Shown here piece by piece: positions 165 through 7,686 of a stretch of 64,000 nt of DNA. The stretch lies in NCBI GenBank assembly GCA_002862125.1, contig PHSP01000003.1, positions 1 through 64,000 of the forward strand, given 5' to 3'. How positions within the stretch are numbered: position 1 is the stretch's first letter; every line of letters begins with the position of its first letter. The DNA comes from Methylobacter sp. KS41. GTDB taxonomy: Bacteria > Pseudomonadota > Gammaproteobacteria > Methylococcales > Methylomonadaceae. The notes below the pieces were generated by a model that ran no database searches, was not told the origin of the DNA, and saw only the letters and a list, made by a program, of their open reading frames with translations. The translations under genes were made by a program, and so were the position numbers.

Positions 165-502
165 ACGGCAACAGCCCCTAATAAAACTACAAAACGTCCT
201 GCCGACTGGACACCCGAGGAACGCTTTCAGGCGTTAATGGCTAGCCATGGCTTGGAAGATGAGGATTTAAACGCTTTCTGCCGAACGCAAGGCATATTCT
301 TTCATCACCTGGAGGCCTGGCGACAGGATTTTATCAACAGCACTCACAAGTCAGCTCAGGAGTCATCTGGCAAAAGCTTGCGCGATGAAAACAAGCAACT
401 CAAAAAAGACTTACAACGTAAGGAGAAAGCCTTGGCGGAAACCGCGGCTTTACTGGTATTACAAAAAAGTTCCAAGCGTTCTGGGAGGAAAAGGCGTCAT
501 GA
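165..502 (+). pseudogene. IS3-like orfA transposase subunit, frameshifted and with degenerate start
   Basis: The small DNA-binding subunit of an IS3-type transposase is readable from position 165. There an ACG follows a GGGGAA ribosome-site-like stretch, exactly where homologues would have ATG. The first real in-frame ATG is at 237. The frame runs through a leucine/lysine-rich coiled coil (about 365-460). At an A6 run (463-468) the zero frame leaves the family-like ending and stops at 542. Reading one base back gives the ending LQKKFQAFWEEKAS and a stop at 500-502, overlapping the orfB ATG at 499. Either one A has been lost or this is a -1 slippery site. I favour decay because the start codon also looks mutated. 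Confidence 0.6.
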
Positions 503-1566
503 TTTTACTCGCAGAACGCAGACTACTCATAGCATGGATTGACCTCGCAGTGAGCGAAGGCGCAAGGCTTAACAAGGCCTGCGGCATTATTGGCTTAAGT
601 ACGCGCACGCTCCAGCGCTGGCGGCAACCCGAAGAACTCCAGGCAGACGGACGGATGACTCGAGCCTTCACGCCCGCCAATAAGCTATCCTCGGCAGAAC
701 GCGCGCAGGTCATCGCCACCGCCAATTGCGAGGAGTTTAAACAGTTAACACCGCACCAGATTGTACCGCGCTTGGCTGAGCGAGGGGAATACCTCGCCTC
801 GGAATCCACTTTTTATCGTATTCTAAAAGCTGAGAACCAACTGGCTCATCGCCATGCCAGTCAACCACCCCGGCAGGTTTCAAAACCCAAGGCCTTATCA
901 GCAACAGCGCCCAATCAACTGTATAGCTGGGATATTACCTATCTGACGACCGCCGTCAAAGGTCAATTCTTCTATCTGTACCTTTTTATGGATATTTTTA
1001 GCCGGAAAATAGTCGGTTGGCAGGTCTACATGGAAGAAAACAGTGCCTATGCGGCCGACGTCATCCGCGATATTTGCCGACGTGAAGGCATTACCGAGGG
1101 ACAAGTGATCTTACATTCTGACAATGGCAGTCCGATGAAAGGTGCCACTATGCTGGCAACCCTTCAGCAGCTCGGCGTCATGCCCTCCTTGAGCCGCCCG
1201 TCAGTCAGCAATGACAATCCCTATTCAGAAGCCTTGTTCAAAACCTTGAAATATCGCCCTGAATATCCTTTGCAACCATTCTCTACGCTATCAGAAGCCA
1301 GAGCATGGGTGACGGATTTTGTGGCTTGGCACAACCTTGAGCATCGGCACAGTAGCATCCATTTTGCAACCCCAGAACAACGACATAGAGCTGAAGATCA
1401 AGCGATTCTCAAAGCAAGAAAGGACACCTATAGCGCTGCTAAAGTAGCGAACCCCGCACGATGGAGCAAGGAGATCAGAAACTGGGAATGGCAAGCAGAG
1501 GTGTTCTTAAATCCCGATAAACCGAACACTCAGCCGACAAATTGCACGACTAATAGTGTTCATTAA
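499..1566 (+). CDS. IS3-like orfB transposase, DDE integrase core
   Basis: Transposase catalytic subunit of about 355 residues. The start at 499 is chosen because a GGGAGGA ribosome site sits just upstream and the codon overlaps the presumed orfA stop. A helix-turn-helix segment spans about residues 22-42, followed by a second helical domain (about 60-115). The rve-type core carries D145 (YSWDIT), D208 (HSDNGS) and E244 (NPYSEALFK), with 35 residues between the last two, as in IS3 elements. The ORF is intact, so if orfA is broken the element is probably immobile unless frameshifting or another copy supplies orfA (inference). Confidence 0.8.
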   Translation: MILLAERRLLIAWIDLAVSEGARLNKACGIIGLSTRTLQRWRQPEELQADGRMTRAFTPANKLSSAERAQVIATANCEEFKQLTPHQIVPRLAERGEYLASESTFYRILKAENQLAHRHASQPPRQVSKPKALSATAPNQLYSWDITYLTTAVKGQFFYLYLFMDIFSRKIVGWQVYMEENSAYAADVIRDICRREGITEGQVILHSDNGSPMKGATMLATLQQLGVMPSLSRPSVSNDNPYSEALFKTLKYRPEYPLQPFSTLSEARAWVTDFVAWHNLEHRHSSIHFATPEQRHRAEDQAILKARKDTYSAAKVANPARWSKEIRNWEWQAEVFLNPDKPNTQPTNCTTNSVH

Positions 1567-1578
1567 TTTTCATCATAG

Positions 1579-2052
1579 GCGACAAGTACTTTGACATTTT
1601 CCGTGTTTTTTGAACCGTTAGAAGGAAAACGGCAGGTGGTGGTAACGGATCAAAGAACAGCGGTGGATTGGGCGCATCAAATTCGCAACTTGGTTGATGT
1701 GCAGTACCCTCGCGCTGAACTCATTACCTTGGTTATGGATAATTTAAACACTCACACAGGAGCATCTCTGTATAAAGCATTCGCCCCTGAGGAAGCACGA
1801 AGAATTCTGGATAAATTGCAAATCCACTACACCCCCAAGCATGGTAGTTGGTTAAATATGGCGGAAATAGAATTGAGCATCTTATCTCGTCAATGTTTAG
1901 ATCGACGCTTTCCAGACCAAGAAACATTAAAGATGGAAATCGCAGCATGGCAAGAAAAAAGAAATGCTATTGCTCAACCTATGGAATGGCGTTTTACAAA
2001 TGAGGACGCTCGGGTAAAATTGAAAAAACTTTACCCGACATTACAAGAATGA
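1579..2052 (+). pseudogene. IS630-family transposase, C-terminal fragment
   Basis: The reading frame from about 1579 encodes roughly the last 155 residues of an IS630/Tc1-like DDE transposase, a family of about 340 residues. A stop (TAG at 1576) precedes it in frame, and the first usable start is TTG at 1591. Visible hallmarks are FFEPL near the N-end, MDNLNTH (second catalytic Asp, residue 50 counted from 1591) and HGSWLNMAEIE (catalytic Glu, residue 92). The C-terminus ending LYPTLQE appears complete. The N-terminal half and first catalytic Asp are missing, consistent with disruption by the adjoining IS3-like element. Confidence 0.8.
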
Positions 2053-2151: not shown

Positions 2152-2784
2152 TTAGATCGTAACGAGCGCCCGGTAACGCGCCAGATCATTTGGCGCATCT
2201 AAATCCCACTGCTGTTTGAGAGTATGATAGGCAAGATTATATTGTTTGAGGCGAGTGCAGGTATGTTCATGCACAAGCCCGGTTCCCCAAGGCATATTAT
2301 CAAAAAGCTCCGGATGAGGTTGATTAAGACCAATCAACACATAGCCGCCGTCTTCTGCAGGCGCTAAAACACAACAATTTTCCTGATTTAAGGCTTCTAA
2401 TGCAGCTTCCAGATCCTGACCGGTTAAAGATGGACAATCACAGCCAATTATCAATGCGCTGGAATAGCTATCAAACGCCAGACAAAATGCGTTGTTCATT
2501 CGCGCCCCTAAATCCTCACCCTGTTGTTGCCGGAGAATTACCTGAAAGCTTTGCTCTGACGCTTTAAAAAATGCATGGTCAATAGATGGTGTACACCAAA
2601 GTTGGATGGGGCATAAATTACTTTGAATCGCCAGTTGCAGCGTTCTTTGAGTGAGCTCGATATGTACCTGCATGGCCTGTTCGGGAGTTAAGTCAGTTGT
2701 TAAACGAGTCTTAACCTGACCAGCGATTGGAGCTTTACAGAAAATCATCAAAACAGCATCAGAATATTTATAAGCCATATTCAC
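2152..2784 (-). CDS. TIGR04282-type glycosyltransferase (DUF2064 family)
   Basis: A 210-residue protein of the DUF2064/TIGR04282 family, related to nucleotidyltransferases such as CofC and often called an arsenosugar-biosynthesis or rSAM/selenodomain-associated glycosyltransferase. The N-terminus has the sugar-nucleotide-binding signature FCKAPIAGQVKTRL, and IIGCDCPSL supplies the D-x-D-like motif. It is the last gene of a minus-strand operon: its ATG overlaps the stop of the sterol desaturase by 4 bp, and the TIGR04283 partner is two genes upstream. The substrate is unknown. No rSAM gene of the arsenosugar type is seen nearby. Confidence 0.85.
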   Translation of the reverse strand: MNMAYKYSDAVLMIFCKAPIAGQVKTRLTTDLTPEQAMQVHIELTQRTLQLAIQSNLCPIQLWCTPSIDHAFFKASEQSFQVILRQQQGEDLGARMNNAFCLAFDSYSSALIIGCDCPSLTGQDLEAALEALNQENCCVLAPAEDGGYVLIGLNQPHPELFDNMPWGTGLVHEHTCTRLKQYNLAYHTLKQQWDLDAPNDLARYRALVTI

Positions 2785-3572
2785 CGTTCCCTTAGGGATT
2801 TAAAAGGCAGCAGCAAAAGCTGCATGAAACCCAGTTCTTTTTGCTGGCGGAAAGGCTTTAAACCAATCTCCATCGAAATTTGAGGCAGCCTGGGTTCGGC
2901 AACATAAGTTTTACAAAGGCGGTCCCACCAGGAAATCGAAAAGCCGTAGTTACTGTCTGTTTCTGCCGGAATTGTCGAATGATGAATGCGGTGCATATCC
3001 GGTGTAATGATAAGCCAGCGTAATTTTTTTTCAATCGCTGAAGAAATATTGACGTTGCTGTGATTAAACGTCGCGGCGCCGTTAAGAATAATCTCGAAAG
3101 CTATCACTGCCCAAGGATTTGCGCCAATCAAATAAATGCACAGGACTTTATAAAGCATCGAAATCATGATCTCCAAAGGGTGAAAGCGCACAGCTGTAGT
3201 GGCATCAAATTCCAGATCAGTATGATGCACCTGATGCAAATGCCAAAGCGGGGACCATTTATGCGAAACAATATGCTGGCAGTAAATGGCAAAATCAAGA
3301 AATAACAAAGTAACTATAATCGACAGCCATTGAGGAGCCGCCAACCAGTTTAAAAGGCCCAGGGATTTCCCTATTGCATCTACGGCGCTTAAATAAGCAA
3401 TACCGCCGATCGTTAAACGCATTAGAACTATGTTAAAGGCGGCAAGCCCAAGATTAACCGGCCAGCGATGTTTACGGCAAATCCGTTGTGTTCTTCTGGG
3501 GCTGAAATATTCCCAGCAAATCATAATGAAAAAAATACCTAACGATGCTGCCAGACGAATTATAGATTCCAT
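2781..3572 (-). CDS. Sterol desaturase / fatty acid hydroxylase family protein
   Basis: A 263-residue integral membrane di-iron enzyme. Hydrophobic segments occupy about residues 5-20, 35-55 and 75-95. The diagnostic histidine boxes are HIVSH (HxxxH), HLHQVHH (HxxHH) and HRIHH, which bind the non-haem di-iron centre that hydroxylates or desaturates lipid C-H bonds in this superfamily. It lies between the TIGR04283 and TIGR04282 glycosyltransferases, overlapping the latter by 4 bp, so a lipid or glycolipid modification pathway is plausible (inference). The real substrate (sterol, hopanoid, carotenoid or fatty acid) cannot be read from the sequence. Confidence 0.85.
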   Translation of the reverse strand: MESIIRLAASLGIFFIMICWEYFSPRRTQRICRKHRWPVNLGLAAFNIVLMRLTIGGIAYLSAVDAIGKSLGLLNWLAAPQWLSIIVTLLFLDFAIYCQHIVSHKWSPLWHLHQVHHTDLEFDATTAVRFHPLEIMISMLYKVLCIYLIGANPWAVIAFEIILNGAATFNHSNVNISSAIEKKLRWLIITPDMHRIHHSTIPAETDSNYGFSISWWDRLCKTYVAEPRLPQISMEIGLKPFRQQKELGFMQLLLLPFKSLRER

Positions 3573-3613
3573 ATATGCCCTCTTGTAATATCCAGGAAAT
3601 CTTGCGGTAATTT

Positions 3614-4348
3614 TTAGTCGCCCTTGGGCGGATTAATCCGTTCCCACAAATCCCTGAATTTGAATTGAGTGAGTACACTATTTGTATAAAGAAAAGCCAA
3701 GGTTTGCGGGTCTGCCCCAAAATAGTAACGCAGCCGAATACTCCACATCAGCAGCACAGTCTTGTAAATACCATTTTGCTCCCAGCGTCGTCCAGAACTG
3801 ATGACTTTATCTCTCAGGCAAATGGGCCGACTGATTTTCTTTAGCGCTTTACAAAGAGCGATGTCTTCCATCAAATTGATTTCAGGATAGCGCCCAGCCT
3901 TTTCAAAGGCGCTTCTCGTAACAAAAATAACCTGATCGCCAGTTGCTACCCCCGTTAACCGGGAACGCCAGTTCATCATTTGCGCAATGACTTTTAACAT
4001 GAACGGGTCACCGCTCAGTTGAATATCAAAACGCCCCCATTGGCGGGTATCGCTGATATTTTGTTGGATCAGCGGCAATGCGTTTGCTGGTAAACCGGTG
4101 TCGGCATGCAGGAATATCAATACATCCCCCTTTGCATGCCTGGCACCGTTATTCATTTGTCTGGCCCGGCCCTTTGCCGAAATTATTACTTCATCAGCCA
4201 AGATCGACGCAAGAGTTCGCGTGTTATCGTTGCTGTCCCCATCAACAATAATAATCTCACATTCGTTTCTTAACGGTTGCAACGCTGATAAGCTGGGTTG
4301 AATGGTTTCCTCTTCATTCAGTGTCGGAATAATAATAGAAAATTTCAT
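3614..4348 (-). CDS. TIGR04283 family GT2 glycosyltransferase
   Basis: A 244-residue GT-A fold glycosyltransferase family 2 protein. It opens with FSIIIPTLNEEETI and carries IIVDGDSND plus a D-x-D-like HAD (LIFLHADTG) for nucleotide-sugar and metal binding. The overall sequence fits TIGR04283, which is commonly encoded beside TIGR04282, as here with one gene between. It starts 43 bp downstream of the GumC-like gene and 42 bp before the sterol desaturase, so all four genes may be cotranscribed. There is no signal peptide or membrane span, so a cytoplasmic enzyme is expected. Donor and acceptor sugars are unknown. Confidence 0.87.
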   Translation of the reverse strand: MKFSIIIPTLNEEETIQPSLSALQPLRNECEIIIVDGDSNDNTRTLASILADEVIISAKGRARQMNNGARHAKGDVLIFLHADTGLPANALPLIQQNISDTRQWGRFDIQLSGDPFMLKVIAQMMNWRSRLTGVATGDQVIFVTRSAFEKAGRYPEINLMEDIALCKALKKISRPICLRDKVISSGRRWEQNGIYKTVLLMWSIRLRYYFGADPQTLAFLYTNSVLTQFKFRDLWERINPPKGD

Positions 4349-4390: not shown

Positions 4391-6367
4391 TCAGCCAATA
4401 CTCTCTAAAGCGGGATGAAGCAGTTCTATATCAGCAATGTTGAGACCTTGTTGAGGCGGAGAATAGGGGCTGTAACTTGAAATAACGGAAGGCTCCAGAT
4501 AGCCAGTGATTTGCTCAAGATCTGATAAGCGTAGCCCTTGGCGAACAAGATAGACGATATAACTATGTCGAATTGTTTCGGCAGTGATTTCATCAGGATT
4601 GGGCAAACCTGAGTCAACCGCCGCACATAGCAGAACAGCGGCAAGATCGTTAGGAGACGCTGGTTTATCGTTATCCCATGCAGGGCGGCCGTCTGATTGG
4701 GCAAATAGAGAATTGAGCGCGCGACTAATGGTAAGGATTCTCGGTGCGGAGCCTGTGATGGCTATAGTTGACGTTACCAGATCAATTTGCTCGGCTTTAA
4801 GAGAGGCCGCTTCATCAAGGGTCAGTCCGCTGAGCAGTAAACTGATTACCTGCTTGCCTTTCAGGTTCGAAGCGTTAAGCAACATCCTCAGTTGAAGAAC
4901 GGAAAGCTCCCTGTACAGAGGACTTGCAAGGGCATTCTTCTGTTTTTGTTCTATGGGCTGCGCGGCCGCTTGTTGATAATTGAGCATATCTGACACATTG
5001 GGGTTATATAAATGAATGCCGGAAAGTGTGATAGGCGAGGGTTGCTCATGTTTTCGAGTTAAATATTCGAAAATCCATACTGCGAAAAGGCCTAGCAATA
5101 AAGAACTGACCAGTGCGATAAGAGCATCACGGCTATAATCAGGTCTTACCGGATCCATTGACAGGTATGCACGGCTTATAACCGTGACCTGAGGGTATTT
5201 TTCCTTTTGACTGGTTTCAATCTGTACTAATCGTTCCTGCGTTTCACGGTAGAGCTGTTCCAGGCCTTCCAAATCCGATTTTAATGCATCGTGTTCAGCA
5301 AATTTTGTAGTAAATGCCGCCGAAAGCTTTTTTTGATCCGCAAGTTGGGCGCGAATTTCTATAACGGTTTGCTGAGCGGCTGCATACTTGTTTTCTGCTT
5401 CAGTCAGCGCCAGGTCTTTGCCATAGGCCCGTTTTTTTATAATTTCGGCTTCAAGTTTTTTAATCTGCTCGGGGATAATTTTTAATGCGGGTTGTTTATT
5501 CAAGTAGTCCCTGGTAAATTTTTTATCAAACTCAACCATTTTCTCGCGCAAGTCTTGCAAGCGTTTTTCAAGGTCTTGCAAACTGCCACGATCTTGATCA
5601 GGAACAACTGCCTGGTCACGGGCGATAGCTGATTTGATGGCATCAAGATTTGCTTTCGCCTTGACTTCATCCTCACTGGCTTTATTAAGGGAGTCATTTA
5701 TGCCATTAAGCCGGGCTAGCGGCTCATTTTCATCGCGTCCAGCCGAAGAAATATCATTGATTTCCCTAAAATTTTCGAGTTCAGCCCGCTTGGCTTCAAT
5801 TTTTTCAGCCAAACCTTTCATTTCGTCTTCAATAATACGCGACGTATTACCCGTTAATTTTTTGATGTCATCAGCCCTAGCATCCTGGTAAACATCAACC
5901 CAGGTATTAACGAGCAACGGTAAAAATTCAGGGTCGGTTCCTTCCGCTCGAATTTCAACAAGATTAGTGTCGGTAATTGGTTCAACGGTCAAGAAATTTT
6001 GAATATCATAAGCCGTCAACTTAAGCACTGCTTCGTCAGTGCTTGATGCTTGAAGTCGAGTCAAGGTTTCGGCAACCAGTTCGTGTCCAAGTAAAATCTG
6101 TTTTTGAATGGCGACATGTTGAACGTTTGCCGTGGTAGTTTCTTCCCGATCTATAGCAGTCATTGCCGAGGTTAGCAAGGTTGCGCTACTGCGGTAAATT
6201 GCGGGCCGGCTGTAGTTATAGGCCAGGCTTGCGATTGCGCTAATTAAAAACACTGTGACAAAAATAATAAATCTGTGTGACCGGAACCAAGGTTTTTGAT
6301 TGAAGCCAGACGGCGCATAGAAACTGTCGTCTGGAAAAATATCAATTTTCGGTAAATAATTTTTCAT
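4391..6367 (-). CDS. GumC/Wzz-like chain-length protein fused to a degenerate tyrosine-recombinase-like domain
   Basis: A 658-residue protein. Residues 1-440 fit a Wzz/GumC polysaccharide co-polymerase: TM1 at about 33-51, a periplasmic domain, long coiled coils (about 170-390) and a closing TM2 at about 414-434 after DPVRPDYSRD. These proteins set chain length of exported polysaccharide in the inner membrane. Instead of a kinase, residues about 480-640 resemble the catalytic domain of tyrosine recombinases: LYRELSVLQLRMLLNA, LLLSGLTLDEAASLKAEQID, then TIRHSYIVYLVRQG and ITGYLEPSVISSYS. The first catalytic Arg is Thr (T516) and the HxxR box reads ExxR (R600), so recombination activity is unlikely. 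It heads the glycosyltransferase operon. Confidence 0.75.
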   Translation of the reverse strand: MKNYLPKIDIFPDDSFYAPSGFNQKPWFRSHRFIIFVTVFLISAIASLAYNYSRPAIYRSSATLLTSAMTAIDREETTTANVQHVAIQKQILLGHELVAETLTRLQASSTDEAVLKLTAYDIQNFLTVEPITDTNLVEIRAEGTDPEFLPLLVNTWVDVYQDARADDIKKLTGNTSRIIEDEMKGLAEKIEAKRAELENFREINDISSAGRDENEPLARLNGINDSLNKASEDEVKAKANLDAIKSAIARDQAVVPDQDRGSLQDLEKRLQDLREKMVEFDKKFTRDYLNKQPALKIIPEQIKKLEAEIIKKRAYGKDLALTEAENKYAAAQQTVIEIRAQLADQKKLSAAFTTKFAEHDALKSDLEGLEQLYRETQERLVQIETSQKEKYPQVTVISRAYLSMDPVRPDYSRDALIALVSSLLLGLFAVWIFEYLTRKHEQPSPITLSGIHLYNPNVSDMLNYQQAAAQPIEQKQKNALASPLYRELSVLQLRMLLNASNLKGKQVISLLLSGLTLDEAASLKAEQIDLVTSTIAITGSAPRILTISRALNSLFAQSDGRPAWDNDKPASPNDLAAVLLCAAVDSGLPNPDEITAETIRHSYIVYLVRQGLRLSDLEQITGYLEPSVISSYSPYSPPQQGLNIADIELLHPALESIG

Positions 6368-6515
6368 ATCCGGACTTGTCTTATTATGGCGAGAACAGAA
6401 TATGTCATGAAAAAATGAAAAGGTCTAGTTTCTCAGGATCTGCTGTTAGCAACAAATAGAAATTATGTCAGCCATTATTTGAAGCTAACCCGTCAACCAC
6501 TTCTTTATTCCGGGC

Positions 6516-6546
6516 AAAAAAAACCCGCTGTTAAAGCGGGTTTTTT
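6516..6546 (-). terminator. Strong Rho-independent terminator, bidirectional
   Basis: A perfect hairpin of ACCCGCT and AGCGGGT with a short GTTAA loop is flanked by eight A's on the left and six T's on the right. It therefore works on both strands. On the minus strand it lies about 60 bp past the ompA-like stop codon and should end that transcript before the GumC operon. Confidence 0.92.
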
Positions 6547-6603
6547 GTTTCAGGAAACTCTCAATTTCTTTAAGAGGTTCCAGTCTGGCAACTTCTGTTA
6601 ACC

Positions 6604-7686
6604 TTATTGAGGGTTAATAAGCGGATCTCGCAGAGGGTTTAGAGGTTGTTGAGATTCACCATTAACTTCCAATTGCACGCGACGGTTATTGGCGCGTCCT
6701 TCTTCAGTGTCATTGGTGTCAATGGGGCGAGTCCAGCCATATCCACGCGTAGTTAGATTGGGAAGATGCTCTCCATCAACCAGATACTTTTTGACTGCCT
6801 CTGCGCGGCGGTCAGACAACAGCATATTATGCTTGAATCCGCCTGTTTTACTGGTATGGCCTTGTATCTCAATTTTTAACTCAGGATGTTCTTTAATGAC
6901 TTTGGCCGTATTGTCAAGATTTGCAAAGTACTGCGATGGGATGACAGCAGAATCATTGGCAAATTTGACATCAACAATCCAGCAGCCTTTTATGCTGACT
7001 GAAACGCCGGGCAACGAATTCGGACATTCATCGTTGCAATTATTGACGCCGTCATGATCGTCATCAAGAGTTGAGCAATCCGGCGCAGCAACAGGAGTTG
7101 GTGCTGGAGGCGGCACTTCAGCGACTACCGCTTTTGGTTTCGCGCCAAATGGAATGACGAAGCCAACATTAACAACCATGTCATGATATTCGTTTGTGCC
7201 TGGTTGCAGGTTGGCGTTGAAATTTTGATTGTAACGATAGCGCACATCACTACGGACCAGGAAGTTATCGCTAACTTCATAGGTAAAACCAGCGCCCGCT
7301 TCGCCGATGAGGCCTGCGCCGCTTTTAAAGTTGTGGCTGGTGTTCATGCCGCCTAAACCAAGTACGGTATAGGGCGAAAATTTATCACGAAAGATGTAAT
7401 ATTGCACTTCCGCAATACCCCCGGTCATGTCCGAGCCTCCGTATTTACCGCCGCTCAAGTTTTGATAAAAACCTTTCAACTCGACGTTGAAATGTTCATC
7501 AAGCATTTTGCCAAAGCCCATGCCGCCGCCCCAGCCATTATTGGATTGACGATCGCCACCGGGTTGAACAAACGTGCCAAAAGGCGACACGTACCATCTC
7601 TTATCCACAACATCGTCAGCTTGAGCCATTTGCAAAAACCCTAAGACCGATAATGCTACAAGAGCAAGCATTTGTTTCTTAAACAT
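6604..7686 (-). CDS. OmpA-family outer-membrane protein with TSP3-like linker
   Basis: A 360-residue outer-membrane protein. A signal peptide (about 1-23, cut after QAQA/MAQA) is followed by an eight-stranded beta-barrel with alternating aromatic strands (about 25-185), a Pro/Ala hinge, an Asp-rich calcium-binding TSP3-like repeat (DDDHDGVNNCNDECP) and a C-terminal OmpA peptidoglycan-binding domain (about 235-345) with the conserved NDTEEGRANNRRV signature. It anchors the outer membrane to the cell wall. The start has an AAGGAGA ribosome site 6-7 bp upstream. It is monocistronic, bounded by a strong terminator downstream and a long AT-rich region upstream. Confidence 0.92.
   Translation of the reverse strand: MFKKQMLALVALSVLGFLQMAQADDVVDKRWYVSPFGTFVQPGGDRQSNNGWGGGMGFGKMLDEHFNVELKGFYQNLSGGKYGGSDMTGGIAEVQYYIFRDKFSPYTVLGLGGMNTSHNFKSGAGLIGEAGAGFTYEVSDNFLVRSDVRYRYNQNFNANLQPGTNEYHDMVVNVGFVIPFGAKPKAVVAEVPPPAPTPVAAPDCSTLDDDHDGVNNCNDECPNSLPGVSVSIKGCWIVDVKFANDSAVIPSQYFANLDNTAKVIKEHPELKIEIQGHTSKTGGFKHNMLLSDRRAEAVKKYLVDGEHLPNLTTRGYGWTRPIDTNDTEEGRANNRRVQLEVNGESQQPLNPLRDPLINPQ

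What the first reader, a model, noticed from the sequence alone, without database searches (positions are those of the whole stretch)
4391..6367. Polysaccharide co-polymerase carrying a degenerate tyrosine-recombinase domain
The first two-thirds is a GumC/Wzz chain-length protein with two membrane helices and coiled coils. The cytoplasmic C-terminus, where a tyrosine kinase is common, instead resembles an integrase catalytic fold (RELSVLQLRMLL, LLLSGLTLDEAASL, IRHSYIVYLVRQG). The first catalytic Arg is Thr and HxxR is ExxR, implying a captured fold now used for binding or regulation rather than DNA recombination.
Basis: partly seen in the sequence, partly recalled or inferred. Interest (0 to 1): 0.8.

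Follow-up and report, generated by a model that had tools for sequence, protein, structure and literature searches.

The report
Sugar-chain-length protein with dead recombinase domain
Many methane- and ammonia-oxidising bacteria carry a membrane protein of the kind that helps build slimy outer sugars, with the dead remains of a DNA-cutting enzyme fused to its inner end and apparently kept for some new, non-cutting job.

Summary
The gene (4391-6367, minus strand, 658 aa) encodes a Wzz/Wzc-type polysaccharide co-polymerase (PCP) whose cytoplasmic C-terminus is a degenerate tyrosine-recombinase catalytic domain. Evidence: family profile to XerA, IntI4 and XerD (E 1e-11 to 2e-9) and an AlphaFold model whose 24 PDB matches at E<=0.001 are all recombinase-fold proteins; the full-length model matches Wzc/WzzE and XerA. 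The fusion is old: 79 of 80 fetched named loci keep it (the 80th runs off its contig), in methanotrophs, Nitrosomonadaceae and scattered other lineages, with one later loss clade. Catalysis is lost: Arg-I 0/79, His-II 0/79. So is the basic charge (mean net -6.3 against +6.2 in recombinases) and the core-binding domain. Yet the domain stays conserved, with new fixed positions. The gene is an unlinked second PCP in genomes that mostly also hold the canonical XrtA/PEP-CTERM co-polymerase (80/97 carriers, 35/204 non-carriers). Most likely it is a protein-interaction module acting where other PCPs use a tyrosine kinase (inferred). No paper found in the library searched describes the fusion.

The parts
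4391..6367 (-). PCP-YR gene, 658 aa: polysaccharide co-polymerase fused to a degenerate tyrosine-recombinase catalytic domain
6209..6277 (-). transmembrane helix 1 (residues 31-53)
   Evidence: hydropathy; model helix 31-53
5174..6199 (-). periplasmic Wzz-type domain with long coiled coils (residues 57-398)
   Evidence: model strands 57-66, 126-130, 136-143, 394-398 and helices 148-204, 215-249, 257-283, 293-386; full-length model matches Wzc, WzzE and KpsE
5057..5137 (-). transmembrane helix 2 (residues 411-437)
4928..5053 (-). disordered cytoplasmic linker (residues 439-480)
   Evidence: pLDDT below 50 in the model; low conservation 0.33 for residues 453-485
4448..4912 (-). degenerate tyrosine-recombinase catalytic-like domain (residues 486-640)
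4820..4822 (-). Thr516, position of catalytic Arg-I (Arg in 0 of 79 members)
4577..4579 (-). Glu597, position of the His of HxxR (His in 0 of 79)
4568..4570 (-). Arg600, position of catalytic Arg-II (kept in 70 of 79)
4472..4474 (-). Tyr632, position of the nucleophile (Tyr in 72 of 79)
4394..4447 (-). C-terminal tail (residues 641-658) with conserved [HY]P at 651-652
   Evidence: position 651 H45 Y33 F1, position 652 P78 S1, of 79
3614..4348 (-). next gene downstream, 42 bases away: glycosyltransferase TIGR04283; possible operon partner in Methylobacter-like genomes only
   Evidence: name; its family is seen in 7 of 67 neighbourhoods

Best explanation
An inner-membrane polysaccharide co-polymerase of the Wzc/Wzz kind. 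Two transmembrane helices hold a coiled-coil periplasmic domain (shown by profile and model); where Wzc carries a tyrosine kinase, a flexible linker joins a single tyrosine-recombinase catalytic-like domain (shown). That domain no longer cuts DNA and most likely no longer binds it: Arg-I, Lys, His-II and mostly the third His are gone, the domain is acidic and the core-binding half of a recombinase is missing (shown by sequence and model; the consequence is inferred). It is kept by selection as a folded protein-protein module. Inferred: several copies sit under the co-polymerase ring, and the module drives or senses ring assembly independently of phosphorylation, as proposed for the pseudokinase EcpK with its PCP EpsV. 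Inferred from co-occurrence: it serves, as a second and unlinked co-polymerase, the XrtA/PEP-CTERM exopolysaccharide system, whose own co-polymerase is present in most of the same genomes and, where looked for, its separate kinase too.
For: Fold and fusion. Conservation; in the phylum sample the profile drops from 7e-34 (last member) to 3e-14 (first free recombinase). Loss of catalysis. Acidic domain, 79 members net -6.3 against 17 recombinase regions +6.2. Domain columns 0.54 mean identity against 0.61 periplasm and 0.33 linker; R/K613 in 78 of 79 where 15 of 16 recombinases have Asp, Q610 in 76 of 79. XrtA link: TIGR03007 in 80 of 97 carriers against 35 of 204 non-carriers; by genus 25 of 27 against 5 of 23; 19 of 22 chosen genomes of named loci, among them 15 of 15 Nitrosomonadaceae. 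Kinase TIGR03018 over its cut-off in 21 of 21 chosen carriers, by coordinates within 1 kb of TIGR03007 each time. One member, L131, lies beside PrsT and wecB, both over cut-off. Analogue: EcpK/EpsV (PMC12004946).
Against: No interaction, phenotype or expression data. Most neighbours looked at have nothing to do with polysaccharide (SNF2 helicase, PEP carboxylase, purK). A clade of 13 read orthologues lost the domain and kept the co-polymerase part, so the module is dispensable there. The co-occurrence is not corrected for descent beyond genus level; 17 of 97 carriers showed no TIGR03007 at E<=1e-90, nor did 3 of 22 at E<=1e-60 (genomes of L113, L119, L136), and 35 non-carriers have TIGR03007, so neither needs the other. 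Arg600 and Tyr632 are kept in most members, which a pure scaffold does not explain.
Confidence: 0.5

Rival explanations
1. Membrane-tethered DNA-binding regulator: the degenerate domain still binds a DNA site, like MrpR of prophage SP-beta, tying exopolysaccharide synthesis at the membrane to a chromosomal locus or to expression.
For: MrpR (PDB 8A0A, among the fold matches) has lost recombination but binds DNA (PMC10516654 abstract and passages). Arg-II kept in 70 of 79 and Tyr in 72 of 79.
Against: Domain has pI below 7 in 78 of 79 members against 1 of 17 recombinase regions. No core-binding domain, which MrpR keeps. Lys-beta Lys in 3 of 79.
Confidence: 0.12
2. Decaying passenger: the recombinase piece was fused by accident, has no function of its own beyond being tolerated, and is on its way out.
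For: Complete loss in one clade of genus g17 of the window's family (13 orthologues read; nested among domain-bearing ones); its tree neighbours L130 and L170 have lost the Tyr (by eye).
Against: Domain kept without internal stops in 79 of 80 fetched loci across several families; mean column identity 0.54; G514, L607, L617, G622 in 79 of 79 and new fixed positions.
Confidence: 0.1
3. Docking platform for a heterologous partner, for example the XrtA tyrosine kinase (TIGR03018) or the canonical XrtA co-polymerase, rather than a self-assembly switch.
For: Kinase over cut-off in 21 of 21 and canonical PCP in 24 of 24 chosen carriers (these include domain-less carriers). The acidic domain would suit docking.
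Against: No interface evidence; 17 of 97 carriers showed no TIGR03007 at the cut used, though incomplete genomes may explain part.
Confidence: 0.22
4. Active site-specific recombinase on a membrane anchor.
For: Fold and nucleophile-position Tyr are there.
Against: Arg-I 0 of 79, His-II 0 of 79, Lys-beta 3 of 79; no member with more than three of six catalytic residues; no core-binding domain.
Confidence: 0.01

Closest known systems
PCP-2a co-polymerases (Wzc) and the XrtA chain-length determinant TIGR03007
   Same: Two transmembrane helices, Wzz-type periplasmic domain with coiled coils; TIGR03007 is the best NCBIfam hit for P0001 and the one most members hit, 53 of 55.
   Different: Cytoplasmic C-terminus is a recombinase-type domain, not a kinase; the score (65.9 bits for P0001) is far under the TIGR03007 cut-off of 278.85, and on the tree the family is separate from nine TIGR03007 or TIGR03007-like PCPs.
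Xer/integrase tyrosine recombinases (PF00589; XerA 5hxy and 4a8e, XerD, P2 Int)
   Same: Same catalytic-domain fold over nearly its whole length, and shared scaffold residues (G514, E519, R543, G611, G622).
   Different: Catalytic Arg-I, Lys and His-II lost; acidic; no core-binding domain; membrane-bound.
MrpR (YopR), repressor of prophage SP-beta
   Same: A tyrosine-recombinase fold that lost recombination and was given a new job; Arg-I and His-II positions also replaced (PMC10516654, abstract and passages).
   Different: MrpR has a core-binding domain and binds DNA; this one is an acidic C-terminal module of a membrane protein.
EcpK/EpsV and HfsB/HfsA pseudokinase-PCP pairs
   Same: A dead enzyme fold at the cytoplasmic base of a co-polymerase, proposed to act as scaffold without phosphorylation (PMC12004946, abstract, Discussion and passages).
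   Different: EcpK and HfsB have the kinase fold and are separate proteins; here the fold is of recombinase descent and fused.

Membership tests
Tyrosine recombinase superfamily (fold and descent) | Catalytic-domain fold and significant profile similarity | tested here: met
Tyrosine recombinase superfamily (enzyme) | Catalytic residues R, K, H, R, H/W, Y | tested here: not met
   Arg-I 0/79, Lys 3/79, His-II 0/79, Arg-II 70/79, third His 10/79, Tyr 72/79; none keeps more than 3 of 6
Tyrosine recombinase superfamily (enzyme) | N-terminal core-binding domain and basic DNA-binding surface | tested here: not met
   only a disordered linker precedes the domain; net charge negative on average (whole-domain charge, no surface map was made)
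Polysaccharide co-polymerase (Wzz/Wzc) | Two TM helices flanking a periplasmic Wzz-type domain | tested here: met
Polysaccharide co-polymerase (Wzz/Wzc) | Oligomeric ring; control of polymer length | not testable with these tools
   needs protein or mutant
PCP-2a (Wzc type) | Fused BY-kinase domain with Walker motifs and Tyr-rich tail | tested here: not met
   C-terminus is the recombinase-type fold
TIGR03007 XrtA chain-length determinant | Score above the curated cut-off (278.85 bits) | tested here: not met
   65.9 bits
MrpR-like dead recombinase repressors | DNA binding | not testable with these tools
   only indirect: acidic charge argues against
EcpK-type pseudokinase scaffolds (works like) | Dead enzyme domain that binds the PCP and is needed for polysaccharide synthesis | not testable with these tools
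   loss of catalytic residues is shown; binding and need are not

The most novel reading that the evidence does not exclude
A tyrosine-recombinase catalytic domain has been converted, once, into a charge-reversed cytoplasmic protein-interaction switch of a polysaccharide co-polymerase, giving a kinase-free class of PCP that regulates XrtA/PEP-CTERM exopolysaccharide in methane and ammonia oxidisers.
Probability: 0.45. Interest if true: 0.85.

Novelty: new variant of a known kind. Interest (0 to 1): 0.72.

Why it matters
A dead recombinase fold with a new job is known in the DNA-binding repressor MrpR, and domesticated Crypton recombinases are reported (PMC3212892, title and start of abstract seen in the listing). 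One on a membrane sugar-polymer machine, with its charge reversed, would be a different fate for this fold. It also offers a natural test of what the cytoplasmic part of a co-polymerase must do: kinase, pseudokinase, recombinase relic, or nothing (the domain-less clade). The carriers include methanotrophs and ammonia oxidisers, whose biofilms matter for methane and nitrogen turnover (recalled), and the gene seems to have passed between the two groups.

Tried and rejected
Rejected: assembly or frameshift fusion (same architecture in dozens of separate assemblies, no internal stop in the frames of the 80 fetched loci). Active recombinase. Mobile cargo: no match to P0001 in 72,556 plasmid records, none to the domain in 50,697 phage records, none in IMG/VR (IMG/VR was searched with one close-relatives query only). 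Conserved operon: of 67 neighbourhoods compared, the commonest neighbour family occurs in 11, and the glycosyltransferase next door in 7. Domain-less g17 proteins as the ancestral state: they nest inside domain-bearing ones (bootstrap there rough by the program's own word).

Biases I know of. The 16-17 comparison recombinases were the best hits of the fused-domain profile and were picked with a pattern that demands His and Arg of HxxR, so their His-II and Arg-II conservation (16/16) is by construction, and the hhalign result is not fully independent; Arg-I, Lys, third His and Tyr were not selected for. One of the 17 (L148, 166 aa) was dropped from the residue table. One search confirmed 101 relatives but kept 80; 21 were not seen. 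Of the 80, L077 (cut at contig end) and L123 (no N-terminus) were dropped from the counts, leaving 78 plus the window = 79. A2 holds 73 and A3 55 of these. Two searches scored at most 4 and 7 candidates per genome, so weak members can be missed. Genomes were chosen by me from carriers, not at random, and include domain-less g17 carriers. The 15 copies read were chosen mainly because they looked short. Of the 97 carriers, by my hand count 76 show the domain (a few in pieces), 17 (all g17; 13 of them read) end without it, 4 are cut or unclear; the association uses all 97. The handle lists and genus lists were copied by hand. TIGR03007 at E<=1e-90 misses broken genes.

Not decided here: dN/dS, interfaces, oligomer state, surface charge map. 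The 'pdb_via' library was not available.

Full report
What is there. The finding's coordinates hold one ORF on the minus strand, 6367 to 4391, 658 aa, ATG start. NCBIfam places residues 31-451 nearest the XrtA-system chain-length determinant TIGR03007 (E 2e-18, 65.9 bits, cut-off 278.85) and the tail nearest archaeal XerA (E 2.2e-6 in the whole protein, 1.3e-6 alone). Pfam gives PF00589 at E 8.5e-4 for the last 189 residues, below its curated cut-off; PDB 4a8e (XerA-like) E 4.7e-4.

Is the resemblance real. Homologues decide it. A first survey of 61 genomes gave, besides the window, 12 long homologues (L002-L013), 11 with the tail and one cut by its contig. A scan of named genomes (84,980 species) confirmed 101 relatives and kept 80. 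79 of these 80 encode the tail domain; L077 runs off its contig (tails read by eye). A profile of 73 tails finds XerA (1.4e-11), IntI4 (2.2e-11), an S. aureus integrase (4.4e-10), XerD (2.3e-9) and other recombinases before anything else in the PDB; 63 of 73 tails hit PF00589 singly at E<=0.1, best 1.1e-8. Profile against profile, hhalign gives 99.2% over 148 columns (the recombinases had been found with a profile of the same family).

Structure. AlphaFold2 on the tail alone (73 sequences) gives mean pLDDT 84.1, mostly above 90 from residue 51 of the construct on; the linker is disordered. All 24 PDB matches at E<=0.001 are tyrosine recombinases, integrases or their dead relative MrpR (best XerA 5hxy, E 1.1e-6, TM-score 0.59 by query length, rmsd 3.0); of the 50 rows listed one, 9rgl (phage repressor complex SroF-Sar), I did not check. 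The full-length model (pLDDT 81.8, pTM 0.42, so domain placement is not to be trusted) has helices 31-53 and 411-437, a periplasmic coiled-coil part, a disordered linker 439-480, then the domain. It matches Wzc (E 8e-10), KpsE and WzzE with its front and XerA with its back; over the long front superposition is poor (TM 0.2-0.3, rmsd 15 or more for Wzc).

Catalysis is gone. Over 79 members: Arg-I position T41 S27 D6 N2 K2 L1, no Arg; Lys-beta Lys in 3; HxxR His in 0 (E37 D13 A9 Q6 and others); Arg-II 70; third His 10; Tyr 72, Phe 4, Leu 3. No member keeps more than three of the six. The glycine before Arg-I, G514, is in 79 of 79; in MrpR the Gly beside the matching place (G136, next to V137/S138 in the paper's table) is the site of the heat-sensitive mutation (PMC10516654, passages; the match of positions is my reading). 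The domain's net charge averages -6.3 (range -14 to +1), pI 5.1, against +6.2 (range -2 to +15) and pI 9.5 in 17 recombinase regions. There is no core-binding domain.

It is not simply decaying. Mean column identity is 0.54 for the domain, 0.61 for the periplasmic part, 0.33 for the linker. New positions are fixed: R or K at 613 in 78 of 79 where 15 of 16 recombinases have Asp; Tyr606 in 68 of 79 where 16 of 16 have His; Gln610 in 76 of 79. In a tree of 57 sequences the 41 fused domains lie on one side of a 99/98 branch from 16 recombinases, so one capture is enough, though not proven.

Distribution. Named members are Methylococcaceae and Methylothermaceae, Nitrosospira, Nitrosovibrio and Nitrosomonas, and scattered Neptunomonas, Sedimenticola and unplaced proteobacteria. 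In 398 genomes spread over the phylum, the window's own and two others carry it (E 6e-90, 1e-76, 7e-34), then a gap down to free recombinases of about 300 aa at 2.6e-14. In 301 genomes of the window's order 97 carry the gene at E<=1e-30. In genus g17, 13 of 15 fetched copies, chosen mainly for looking short, end without the domain; on the N-terminal tree these 13 form one clade (99/94) inside domain-bearing ones, a secondary loss. Nitrosospira/Nitrosovibrio copies group with Methylobacter copies in both trees, which suggests transfer.

Context. Neighbours differ between lineages. In Methylobacter-like genomes the gene is followed by a TIGR04283 glycosyltransferase, a sterol-desaturase-like gene (name by eye) and, in the window, L068 and L096, TIGR04282. 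Yet the gene goes with one system. In the same 301 genomes the canonical XrtA co-polymerase TIGR03007 (E<=1e-90) is in 80 of 97 carriers and 35 of 204 non-carriers; exosortase PF09721, common in the order anyway, in 90 of 97 and 104 of 204. By genus TIGR03007 is in 25 of 27 against 5 of 23. Of 22 genomes I chose through named loci, mostly outside the order, 19 have it, including 15 of 15 Nitrosomonadaceae; the three without are those of L113, L119 and L136. In 24 of 24 chosen carriers of the order a TIGR03007 over the cut-off lies at another place in the genome, and the kinase TIGR03018 is over its cut-off in 21 of 21 chosen carriers, within 1 kb of TIGR03007 by the coordinates (with 56 and 61). 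Single members outside the main groups sit beside PrsT and wecB (L131, both over cut-off), about 4 kb from an amidotransferase resembling TIGR03108 but far below its cut-off (L136, whose genome showed no TIGR03007), or near an HprK-related kinase (L125).

How it most likely works. PCP-2 proteins are held to cycle between oligomeric states under control of a cytoplasmic kinase; EcpK, a pseudokinase, is proposed to do this by binding alone (PMC12004946, abstract and Discussion). By analogy, the dead recombinase domain is a phosphorylation-free interaction module under a second co-polymerase. The architecture, loss of catalytic residues, acidic charge, constraint and co-occurrence are shown; the interaction, the partner and the effect on polymer length are inferred. 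Kept Arg600 and Tyr632 remain unexplained.

Literature. Searches in the held open library returned no paper that, by title and abstract start, describes such a fusion; subscription papers and preprints are not covered. Seen: PMC12004946 (abstract, Discussion, passages), PMC10516654 (abstract, passages), PMC8138268 (passages; the words fusion, membrane and polysaccharide do not occur in its main text). All other papers: listings only.

Noticed in passing
window 237-2052 (+): Transposase-like ORFs at the very start of the contig (393 aa IS3-type by look, then a 153 aa DDE-type piece); the window's left end is the contig end. Names are by eye, not searched.
   Followed up: no
window 2152-4348 (-): TIGR04283 and TIGR04282 glycosyltransferase-like genes (named arsenosugar biosynthesis) with a sterol-desaturase-like gene (by eye) between them, 42 bases behind the finding; the same three recur in L068 and L096, the first two in L086.
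   Followed up: partly
window 6510-6550 (-): By eye a GC stem with T-run lies between the OmpA-like gene (6604-7686) and the finding, so the two are probably not co-transcribed; the terminator scan did not list it.
   Followed up: no
L062-L076 and L079 (Nitrosospira, Nitrosovibrio among Methylobacter loci): Ammonia-oxidiser copies group with Methylobacter copies in both trees (three and two of them in the trees), suggesting horizontal transfer between methane and ammonia oxidisers.
   Followed up: partly
   Followed up: partly
L181 (G000:C1:378700-380800): The window's genome holds a further TIGR03007-like co-polymerase about 3 kb from an exosortase (C1:375123), besides the one at C2:191994.
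   Followed up: no
L125 5321-6226, L132 4896-5804: HprK-related kinase A (TIGR04352, found in L125; L132 has the same family by clustering) lies a few genes upstream of the co-polymerase in two MAGs.
   Followed up: no
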